From the NCBI RefSeq assembly GCF_029338295.1, contig NZ_CP119791.1, positions 1,240,001-1,304,000 on the forward strand: a stretch of 64,000 nt of DNA, written 5' to 3'. The position numbers were made by a program, and so were the translations under genes. The first letter of the stretch is position 1. Every line of letters starts with the position of its first letter. The notes beneath the pieces were generated by a model, which did not search any database, was not told the origin of the DNA, and saw nothing but the letters and a program-made list of their open reading frames with translations. Shown one piece after another: positions 18,408 through 21,523 of the stretch. This DNA comes from Haladaptatus sp. QDMS2. GTDB taxonomy: Archaea > Halobacteriota > Halobacteria > Halobacteriales > Halococcaceae.

Positions 18408-19729
18408 GCGTCCACGACGACGATTCGCAGGTCGTTTACGTTCGTCCCCGTCGCGCCGGTGTGCAGGTGGGCACCTGCCGCCGCGAGCAGGGGATAGACG
18501 TCATTTTCCCGCAGGGCCGTGCTGGCAGCGGTGCGGTCGTCGAACGTCTCCGTATCGACGAGTGCGCCGGCCACGTCGGTGGCCCCGTCGATGCCGTCTG
18601 AATCGACCGCCGCGACGGTGATTCGCTCGTCTCGGAGTTCGAGCGCCGCGCTCACACAGAACTCCTGGCTCGGGCCACCCTCGCCGTCACCACGAACCGT
18701 GACAGTGCACTCGCCACCCGCAAGGAGAACGCACGGGGCGTCCAGTGGATTCCCCGTCGCGAGTACTTCCTCGGCCACGGCGACGTGAGACTTCGCCGCC
18801 TCGCGGGCCTCACCGCGGACGCTCGACGAGAGGACGAGCGGGTCGTACCCCTGTTCTTTCGCGACCTCACGGGCAGCGTCGAGCGCCGTGAAATTGTCCG
18901 CGAGGATGTGGGTGGTCACCCGGTCGAAAATCGGGTCGTCCGCCCGGGGCGTCTCCTGTAAGTCACCCGACGCGCCGCGTTCGAGGTGTGCCGATACCGC
19001 GTCCGGGACGGGCACGTCGTACTGTGAGAGCACCGACAGTGCGTCCTCGTAGGTCGAATCGTCGGGGACGGTCGGGCCGCTGCCGATGACCGAGAGGTCG
19101 TTGCCGACGACGTCAGAAAGGACGAGGCCGACGACCGTCGCGGGGGCGGCGAGACGGGCGAGTTGCCCGCCTTTGAGCGCAGAGAGGTGTTTTCTCACGG
19201 CGTTGATCTCGTGGATGGTCGCCCCCGATTCGAGCAGCGCGTTGGTCGTGGCCTGGAGGTCGTCGAGTGTGATTGCATCGACCGGTGCGGGCAGGAGGGC
19301 GCTCGCCCCGCCCGTGATGACGGCGAGGACGAGGGTGCGTTCGTCGGCGCGTTCTGCGGCCACCATCACCGCGGTGGCTCCTTCCACGCCGCGCTCGCTC
19401 GGGACCGGGTGGTCGCCGCGGTGGACGGTCACGCGGTCAGTTTCGGCCGGGTCGTCGGTGACCACGACGCCGCCGGAGAGCCGGTTCCCGAGGGCGGTTT
19501 CCAGGGCCGCGGCGACGTGTGCGGCTGCGTTCCCGCCTCCGAGGACGACTACGTCGTCGAACGCCGTGAGGTCGTAGGTGACGTTCGCGACGGTGAGGGT
19601 GTCGCCGTCGAGCGAGACGGCGTCGGCGATGACGCGGCGGGGGTGGGCCGCCTCGATGCCCGCTTTGAGACAGTCTAGGGCTACCGTCCGGGCCGGGGTC
19701 GTCGCGTGAATTTCTCGGTCAGTGAACAT
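18404..19729 (-). CDS. Glycerate 2-kinase (GckA/TtuD, MOFRL family)
   Basis: 441 aa, the usual length of class II glycerate kinases, which phosphorylate D-glycerate to 2-phosphoglycerate with ATP. The N-terminal DUF4147-type domain shows DDVVVLGGGNAAAHVAAALE and GDHPVPSERGVEG. It continues through VITGGASALLPAPVDAITLDDLQ, and the MOFRL domain holds LLAGGECTVTVRGDGEGGPSQE and the C-terminal HTGATGTNVNDLRI. Its neighbour, a GntP permease, could supply glycerate. It links to lower glycolysis in haloarchaeal sugar breakdown. Confidence 0.93.
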   Translation of the reverse strand: MFTDREIHATTPARTVALDCLKAGIEAAHPRRVIADAVSLDGDTLTVANVTYDLTAFDDVVVLGGGNAAAHVAAALETALGNRLSGGVVVTDDPAETDRVTVHRGDHPVPSERGVEGATAVMVAAERADERTLVLAVITGGASALLPAPVDAITLDDLQATTNALLESGATIHEINAVRKHLSALKGGQLARLAAPATVVGLVLSDVVGNDLSVIGSGPTVPDDSTYEDALSVLSQYDVPVPDAVSAHLERGASGDLQETPRADDPIFDRVTTHILADNFTALDAAREVAKEQGYDPLVLSSSVRGEAREAAKSHVAVAEEVLATGNPLDAPCVLLAGGECTVTVRGDGEGGPSQEFCVSAALELRDERITVAAVDSDGIDGATDVAGALVDTETFDDRTAASTALRENDVYPLLAAAGAHLHTGATGTNVNDLRIVVVDA

Positions 19730-19826: not shown

Positions 19827-21239
19827 ATGTGGCCGGAACGCCTACACAGCGCGATGGCACGCGCTCCAGTCGCGGCGGGATTGCTGGTGCTCGTCGTCTT
19901 CGCGGGGTGTCTCGGGGGCATCAGCGGCAGCCCAGACGGCACGACACCGACCGCAGAGACGACGACGGTCACGACGGCCAACGGCACGTTCTCGGTTCAC
20001 TACATCAACGTCGGACAAGGAGATAGCACGCTGCTCGTCGGTCCAGGGGGCGAGACAGTCCTCATCGACACGGGCGACTTCAAGGACGACGGTGAGCACG
20101 TCATCGCCTACTTGCAATCGCAGGGCATCACCAGACTGGACGCACTCGTCACCACGCACGCGGACGCAGACCACGTCGGCGGGAACGCCGCCGTCATCGA
20201 ATACTTCGAGACCGAAGCCGACGGCGTCGGCGCGGTGTACGACCCCGGTATCGTCGCCGACACGGCGACGTACACCCGGTATCTGGACGCCGTAGAGGAG
20301 TACGACGTGACGCTGTTCCGAACGCAAGCCGGAGACACGATTCCGATGGAAGGGGTGGACATCTCCGTGTTGAGTCCTCCCGAGAACTACCTCGCAGACG
20401 AGAATCGAAACGAGAACAGTATCGTCCTCCTCGCCACCCACGGCGAGAACCGCTTCCTGTTCACCGGCGACGCAGAGCACGAGGCAGAGGACTATCTCGT
20501 CGAAAAGTACGACCTCGACGTGACCGTGTTCAAAGCCGGTCACCACGGCAGTTCGACGAGCAACAGCCCCGAACTGCTGGACGAGGCCTCACCGGCCGTC
20601 GCGGTCATCTCCAGTGATTTCGACTCGCGCTACGGCCACCCCCACCGAGAGGTGTTAGACGCGTTCGCCACCCGCAACATCCCGACGTTCTGGACGGGCA
20701 CGCACGGTGACGTGGTTGCTGTGAGCAACGGGACGGCAGTGACTCTCAAGACGCAACGCGCCGCGCCGACGGACGCCGCCGACCTGCGGAATGCCGCGCC
20801 TGCGTCCCCGGACCTCGACGCGCCGGTCGAGCCTCGATTGGTCGTCCGCGGCGAGGCGACCAGTCCCGTCGGCGAGACGCCCACGACGGCCGAGCCGACG
20901 CCCGACGGCGGCGTCTCCTTCGTCGTCAAGGAGGTTCACGAGGACGCCGAGGGGCCGGACGGCGACAACCTGAACGACGAGTACGTCGTGTTCGAAAACA
21001 CGGGTGAGGAAGCACTCGACCTGTCCGAATGGACCGTCCGCGACGAGGCCGGAAAGACGTACACTTTCGAGGACCTGACGCTCGCTCCTGGCGCGACAGT
21101 GACGTTGTACACTGGTTCCGGAACCGACTCGGCGACCGAACGCTACTGGGGCGCTGGTAGTCCGGTCTGGAACAACGACGGCGATACGGTTACTGTCACT
21201 GACGCCGAAGGAGGAGTCGTGGTGGAGGTAACCTACTGA
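19827..21239 (+). CDS. Secreted ComEC/Rec2-like metallo-beta-lactamase lipoprotein with lamin-tail domain
   Basis: 470 aa from the ATG at 19827, with purine-rich GAGAAGGG just before it; an ATG at 19854 is also possible. The signal peptide ends in lipobox FAGC (Cys28). The MBL domain (about 54-320) opens with FSVHYINVGQGDSTLL and carries the metal motif HADADH at 111-116 and TGDAEHEAEDYL, as in the nuclease-like part of ComEC. A linker is followed by a lamin-tail (LTD) domain at about 360-470 (YVVFENTGEEALDLSEWTV). The stop overlaps the DUF3006 start. It probably acts outside the membrane as a hydrolase of phosphodiester-type substrates; that is inference. Confidence 0.88.
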   Translation: MWPERLHSAMARAPVAAGLLVLVVFAGCLGGISGSPDGTTPTAETTTVTTANGTFSVHYINVGQGDSTLLVGPGGETVLIDTGDFKDDGEHVIAYLQSQGITRLDALVTTHADADHVGGNAAVIEYFETEADGVGAVYDPGIVADTATYTRYLDAVEEYDVTLFRTQAGDTIPMEGVDISVLSPPENYLADENRNENSIVLLATHGENRFLFTGDAEHEAEDYLVEKYDLDVTVFKAGHHGSSTSNSPELLDEASPAVAVISSDFDSRYGHPHREVLDAFATRNIPTFWTGTHGDVVAVSNGTAVTLKTQRAAPTDAADLRNAAPASPDLDAPVEPRLVVRGEATSPVGETPTTAEPTPDGGVSFVVKEVHEDAEGPDGDNLNDEYVVFENTGEEALDLSEWTVRDEAGKTYTFEDLTLAPGATVTLYTGSGTDSATERYWGAGSPVWNNDGDTVTVTDAEGGVVVEVTY

Positions 21240-21523
21240 TGGTCACAGACGGGGCGTACACGGCGGTCATCGACCGAATCGAGGACAACCATGCAGTCTT
21301 GCTCATCGAGGAAGGCGGCAAGGACGTAGACGAACTCGTCGTCCACGAGACGAAACTGCCGTTCGACATGCGCGAGCCAAATCTCGTCGTCCACGTCACC
21401 CTCGAAGGCGGGAAACTCCGATCGGTGGATGCAGACCGTGAGGAGACGGCAGAACGCATGGAAGATGCCCAGAGCCGCTTCGACCGATTGGCGAAGCGCC
21501 CGCCAGAAACAGAACAGCCCTGA
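21239..21523 (+). CDS. DUF3006 family protein
   Basis: 94 aa, acidic. The core AVIDRIEDNHAVLLIEEGG is the usual start of DUF3006, a small beta-barrel-like domain. It overlaps the MBL lipoprotein gene (stop TGA and ATG share one base), so translation is likely coupled. DUF3006 proteins recur beside ComEC-like MBL proteins in bacteria and archaea, but their function is not known. It has no signal peptide, so if it partners the MBL protein the two are on opposite sides of the membrane, unless the pairing is regulatory. Confidence 0.82.
   Translation: MVTDGAYTAVIDRIEDNHAVLLIEEGGKDVDELVVHETKLPFDMREPNLVVHVTLEGGKLRSVDADREETAERMEDAQSRFDRLAKRPPETEQP

What the first reader, a model, noticed from the sequence alone, without database searches (positions are those of the whole stretch)
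19827..21523. Secreted MBL-lamin-tail lipoprotein coupled to a cytoplasmic DUF3006 protein
The lipoprotein joins a ComEC-type MBL nuclease-like domain to a lamin-tail domain, and its stop overlaps the DUF3006 start. DUF3006 has no signal, so the two seem separated by the membrane. Possible role in DNA uptake, nuclease defence or nutrition from extracellular DNA.
Basis: partly seen in the sequence, partly recalled or inferred. Interest (0 to 1): 0.55.

Follow-up and report, generated by a model that had tools for sequence, protein, structure and literature searches.

The report
Exported nuclease-like lipoprotein with intracellular partner
A salt-loving archaeon carries an overlapping gene pair, one for a surface enzyme that probably cuts DNA and one for a small protein that seems to stay inside the cell; the same pair recurs in many archaea and bacteria, yet the small protein has no known job.

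Summary
Window 19827-21239 (+) encodes a 470-aa lipoprotein, MBL domain plus C-terminal lamin tail domain (LTD). Its TGA overlaps by one base the ATG of a 94-aa DUF3006 protein without a leader (21239-21523). The MBL keeps the catalytic residues of the experimentally active ComEC nuclease domain, but no ComEC pore is present. The pair is not local. In 242 Halobacteria genomes, 152 have both genes, 80 neither, 3 only DUF3006 and 7 only the MBL; three of four checked 'MBL only' cases had a weak DUF3006 downstream. Of 80 bacterial loci chosen by DUF3006 alone, 68 have the MBL directly upstream. Of 20 loci from other Halobacteriota, 17 have it nearby. No fusion was seen. DUF3006 models as a small OB-type barrel with a C-terminal helix; bacterial copies are unusually acidic. 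Some haloarchaeal paralogues away from MBLs have export-like leaders. Best reading: a surface-anchored DNA nuclease with a dedicated cytosolic partner, most likely an inhibitor guarding against unexported enzyme; a chaperone or regulator is possible. Inhibition is inferred. Three intact MBL genes without DUF3006 argue against an absolute antidote requirement. DUF3006 appears in no paper of the searched library.

The parts
19827..21239 (+). MBL-LTD lipoprotein gene, 470 aa (a later ATG at 19854 is an equally good start)
19854..19910 (+). Export leader with lipobox FAGC, no twin arginine (Sec-type by inspection)
20007..20609 (+). Lactamase_B domain as bounded by Pfam, residues 61-261, with THADADH, FTGDAE and GHHGS motifs
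20922..21236 (+). Lamin tail domain, residues 366-470
   Evidence: PF00932 E 1.3e-22
21237..21241 (+). TGATG stop/start overlap of the two genes
21239..21523 (+). DUF3006 gene, 94 aa, leaderless; predicted OB-type barrel (strands in residues 5-65) plus C-terminal helix (67-85)

Best explanation
A two-gene unit shared by archaea and bacteria. Gene 1 is exported, lipid-anchored outside, and most likely an Mn-dependent DNA nuclease of the ComEC-MBL type; the LTD serves as its nucleic-acid- or surface-binding arm. Gene 2 is a dedicated cytosolic OB-fold partner, most likely an inhibitor that holds enzyme which folds before export, as Nin is thought to do for NucA in Bacillus. Shown by sequence: pairing, leader on one and none on the other, intact MBL site, OB-like model, acidity of bacterial copies. 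Inferred: nuclease activity, site of action, binding, inhibition.
For: MBL: best solved match 9ic4, the ComEC nuclease domain; a DUF3006-paired relative models onto 9ic4 at Z 37.3, 1.8 A over 250 residues. PMC12455585 (passages read) shows Mn-dependent endo- and 5'-exonuclease for that domain, near loss of activity on changing most metal-binding residues, and a boost when any of three DNA-binding domains is fused; here the accessory domains include LTD (10 of 31 picked MBL proteins), Ada_Zn_binding 3, Excalibur 1, SLH 1. Pairing: 152 both, 80 neither of 242 Halobacteria; 75 of 80 distinct haloarchaeal MBLs in fetched loci have DUF3006 directly downstream; 68 of 80 bacterial loci; 32 of 38 over-cut-off Bacilli hits within 2.5 kb, in four gene arrangements; 17 of 20 in other Halobacteriota. 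No fusion in 80 bacterial loci. DUF3006 more acidic than local ORFs in 57 of 60. DUF3006 stays open beside broken MBLs, e.g. L104, L115, L123. Nin/NucA precedent: PMC5758888 (passages).
Against: Three intact lipoprotein MBLs (L151, L178, L179) have no DUF3006 beside them; G004, the genome of L151, shows none at all by Pfam. In Bacilli 13 of 45 MBLs with open frames under 700 aa lack a nearby DUF3006 (some may be ComEC fragments). Some DUF3006 sit away from any MBL, some with export-like leaders, which a purely cytosolic inhibitor does not explain. The in-frame read-through model gives pTM 0.81, about what the MBL part alone (255 of 326 residues) would give, so no docking is shown. MBL and DUF3006 charge do not correlate (rho -0.16, p 0.21). 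OB folds often bind nucleic acid rather than inhibit enzymes (recalled).
Confidence: 0.4

Rival explanations
1. DUF3006 is a cytosolic secretion chaperone that keeps the MBL pre-protein unfolded or steers it to Sec.
For: Partner stays inside while the MBL has a leader; CsaA of B. subtilis is a cytosolic export chaperone (PMC12445088, passages; that it has an OB fold is recalled).
Against: Three haloarchaeal MBL lipoproteins do without it; DUF3006 paralogues with export-like leaders exist; a dedicated chaperone for one small Sec lipoprotein would be unusual.
Confidence: 0.2
2. DUF3006 is a nucleic-acid-binding OB protein that tunes expression of the pair or handles imported DNA products.
For: Structure matches are translation and RNA-binding barrels: EF-P, IF5A, cold-shock, S1. 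In two Clostridia loci DUF3006 follows an OB-HD protein.
Against: Bacterial copies strongly acidic, median net charge -6 in about 71 aa; no conserved basic or aromatic patch stood out in alignments A1 or A4; fold alone shows no function.
Confidence: 0.2
3. The MBL is not a nuclease but another phosphodiesterase or esterase, and DUF3006 is its partner for that role.
For: Second-best structure match is the pneumococcal phosphorylcholine esterase domain, Z 28.1; the MBL fold serves many substrates.
Against: 9ic4, an active DNA nuclease, leads by far (Z 37.3), and its key residues are kept. LTD also occurs on a secreted nuclease homologue (PMC3929857, passages); Excalibur on secreted nucleases is recalled.
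Confidence: 0.15

Closest known systems
Haloarchaeal ComA (Halobacterium NRC-1, Hlac_1867)
   Same: MBL plus LTD with a lipobox; Hlac_1867 is reported more abundant in biofilm (PMC5118699, passages; PMC3929857, passages). The Halobacterium R1 homologue is also followed by DUF3006.
   Different: The passages read do not mention the DUF3006 partner or test activity.
ComEC/Rec2 MBL nuclease domain (9ic4)
   Same: Closest solved relative; catalytic residues kept.
   Different: No channel domain, separate exported protein, LTD instead of the N-terminal OB; forms a branch apart from 15 ComEC MBLs (quick tree, support 100).
NucA/Nin and NucA/NuiA nuclease-inhibitor pairs
   Same: A nuclease gene beside the gene of a small inhibitor (NucA/Nin) and a solved nuclease-inhibitor complex (NucA/NuiA) (PMC5758888, passages).
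   Different: Unrelated folds; inhibition by DUF3006 untested.
PF11213 DUF3006
   Same: Window protein scores over cut-off.
   Different: Pfam calls it a protein of unknown function; no mention in the library searched.

Membership tests
DUF3006 (PF11213) | Score over curated cut-off | tested here: met
   46.6 against 32.3 bits
LTD (PF00932) | Score over curated cut-off | tested here: met
   80.7 against 34.3 bits
MBL superfamily (PF00753) | Score over cut-off and metal motifs | tested here: met
   64 against 22.7 bits; motifs
ComEC/Rec2 (TIGR00361) | Equivalog cut-off | tested here: not met
   130.9 against 190.05 bits
ComEC/Rec2 | Competence channel domain | tested here: not met
   no such Pfam match
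ComEC/Rec2 | N-terminal OB related to DUF3006 | tested here: inconclusive
   no profile match with 15 ComEC N-termini; fold class alike
Active DNA nuclease | Catalytic residues of 9ic4 kept | tested here: met
Active DNA nuclease | Cleavage in vitro | not testable with these tools
Nuclease-inhibitor pair | Exported nuclease-like protein next to leaderless small protein | tested here: met
   (leaders judged by inspection)
Nuclease-inhibitor pair | Partner binds and inhibits | not testable with these tools
   model gives no docking evidence
6A-MBL or Avs1 defence MBL | NCBIfam cut-off | tested here: not met
   45.2 against 220; 58.7 against 420 bits

The most novel reading that the evidence does not exclude
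DUF3006 is an OB-fold cytosolic antidote to an ancient family of exported ComEC-type DNA nucleases found across Bacillota and Halobacteriota, with exported haloarchaeal paralogues that protect against the same enzymes outside the cell.
Probability: 0.3. Interest if true: 0.75.

Novelty: new variant of a known kind. Interest (0 to 1): 0.5.

Why it matters
The lipoprotein alone was described; its near-constant partner, a domain of unknown function, was not found in print in the searches made here. A pair kept together in two domains of life, in several gene orders and repeatedly gained or lost together, makes the function of DUF3006 directly testable and bears on how cells handle extracellular DNA without a ComEC pore.

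Tried and rejected
DNA-uptake machine: rejected, no channel domain. Defence system: PADLOC matches cover parts of MBL models only, none for DUF3006; neighbours are GntP permease, DUF4147/MOFRL (glycerate-kinase-like by recall), glyoxalase, DUF4112, flavin oxidoreductase and aconitase. Solved relative of DUF3006 by sequence: none credible. DUF3006 derived from ComEC's OB domain: no profile match. Tat hitch-hiking of DUF3006 with a folded MBL: the window leader has no twin arginine, and RR occurs in 29 of 75 leader strings (by inspection, no signal predictor). Charge complementarity: no correlation. Does DUF3006 pair with other secreted nucleases? The Geobacillus lipoprotein beside one copy is YkyA-like by a sub-cut-off match, not a nuclease. 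Full-length ComEC chains did not show in the structure comparison of the joint model. The careful tree did not finish; the quick one is used. dN/dS for the second same-genus MBL failed on a stop codon in the alignment.

Full report
What is there. Two overlapping genes on the + strand. The first encodes a lipoprotein with an MBL domain and a C-terminal LTD, the second a leaderless DUF3006 protein. The divergent upstream gene starts at 19729, so the pair probably has its own promoter in the gap before 19827 (inference). Neighbours are metabolic.

The enzyme. phmmer against solved structures ranks 9ic4, the MBL domain of Moorella ComEC, first (E 3.2e-29). The residues that PMC12455585 tested (H598, D600, D602, H603, D700, H725, S728; passages read) align with H111, D113, D115, H116, D215, H239 and S242 of the window protein by the motifs. 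In 31 picked relatives H111, D115, H116, D215, H239, H240 and H271 are invariant. A paired Paenibacillus relative models onto 9ic4 at Z 37.3. So nuclease activity is likely but not shown. The same paper finds that each of three fused DNA-binding domains speeds the enzyme; the variable accessory domains here (LTD 10, Ada_Zn_binding 3, Excalibur 1, SLH 1 of 31; the 31 were picked for long heads or tails, plus the window) fit that idea.

The partnership. Halobacteria: DUF3006 in 155 and the MBL in 159 of 242 genomes; both 152, DUF3006 only 3, MBL only 7, neither 80. The Fisher p of 1.7e-51 ignores relatedness, but at least nine genera in the two tables hold both states (read by eye). Of the four MBL-only genomes looked at, three have a weak DUF3006 just downstream and one, G004, has none; three of the seven had no listed coordinates. 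By coordinates 105 of 150 listed DUF3006 matches had a listed MBL upstream; both lists are cut short, so this is a lower bound. In the fetched haloarchaeal loci, picked partly as best hits and partly as exceptions, 75 of 80 distinct MBLs have DUF3006 directly downstream; the five others are L151, L178 and L179 (none), L161 (reverse order) and L175 (contig end). 67 of the 75 overlap if the start nearest the stop is taken, a choice that favours overlap.

Beyond haloarchaea. A genome scan with bacterial DUF3006 kept 80 of 185 confirmed stretches. 68 have the MBL directly upstream; in L120 the MBL lies further up, with a TnpB-like ORF between. The other 11 sit beside unrelated genes (GH3, YceG, OB-HD and others) or had no clear neighbour. 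No fusion was found. In 151 Bacilli genomes, 34 have DUF3006 matches; of 38 matches over the cut-off, 32 lie within 2.5 kb of an MBL with an open frame under 700 aa: 27 downstream, 1 upstream, 3 divergent, 1 convergent; the 10 matches under the cut-off had none. Linkage kept without a shared operon argues for a functional tie. Of 45 such MBLs, 13 lack a near DUF3006; one, L216, has a small downstream protein that looks DUF3006-like by eye but has no Pfam match. Other Halobacteriota: 17 of 20 fetched loci have the MBL; the 20 were the higher-scoring matches outside Halobacteria.

The partner. An AlphaFold2 model of the window DUF3006 (70 sequences, pLDDT 77.8, pTM 0.59) shows five strands and a C-terminal helix. 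The best VIA matches are OB-type barrels: EF-P 9a6x_B Z 9.0, 1.9 A over 61; IF5A 8.1; cold-shock and S1 rows below. Foldseek E-values are weak (best 0.036). Z near 8 can be common, so the fold class is likely and kinship is not claimed. Bacterial copies carry a median net charge of -6 and are more acidic than other ORFs nearby in 57 of 60 loci. Haloarchaeal and bacterial DUF3006 are one family (hhalign E 1e-12).

Compartments. None of the 80 bacterial copies shows a hydrophobic leader; they start at the domain or shortly before it. In haloarchaea, L155-L159 and L167 carry leader-like N-termini and have no MBL in the fetched stretch; L161, L010 and L012 have twin-arginine-like starts, and L161 lies beside an MBL. 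L026 (second copy) and L168 were flagged too but are ambiguous. Leaders were judged by hydropathy and by eye. So the cytosolic form seems the common one, and exported paralogues probably exist.

How it works. I favour a cytosolic inhibitor at 0.4, a chaperone or a nucleic-acid-binding regulator at about 0.2 each. The absolute-antidote form is weakened by the three MBLs without partner. The joint fold gives no evidence of docking.

Novelty. 'DUF3006' and 'PF11213' gave no paper; a wider search gave two papers, both for COG2333 only (one passage read, the other seen in the listing). Of the papers cited, passages were read; no paper was read whole. The library lacks most subscription journals, so this is not proof that nothing is in print.

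Noticed in passing
L120: MBL and DUF3006 separated by a TnpB-like ORF and another ORF, as if an IS200/IS605 element had split the pair.
   Followed up: partly
L121, L130: DUF3006 directly downstream of an OB-HD protein (YhaM-like by recall) in Clostridia.
   Followed up: partly
L216:2367-2657: 96-aa protein after an MBL looks DUF3006-like but has no Pfam match.
   Followed up: partly
L026; G156:C15; G159:C33: Two DUF3006 copies close together on one strand.
   Followed up: no
L155-L159, L167, L161, L010, L012: DUF3006 with leader-like N-termini, mostly away from MBLs.
   Followed up: partly
L210:2673-2921: DUF3006 copy also weakly matches DUF7686, under that family's cut-off.
   Followed up: no
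L219:793-1626: A weak DUF3006-like hit lies downstream of an MBL of another type.
   Followed up: no
L066 (Klebsiella grimontii plasmid pNY3A): The MBL-DUF3006 pair, otherwise seen here in Bacillota and archaea, annotated on a gammaproteobacterial plasmid.
   Followed up: no
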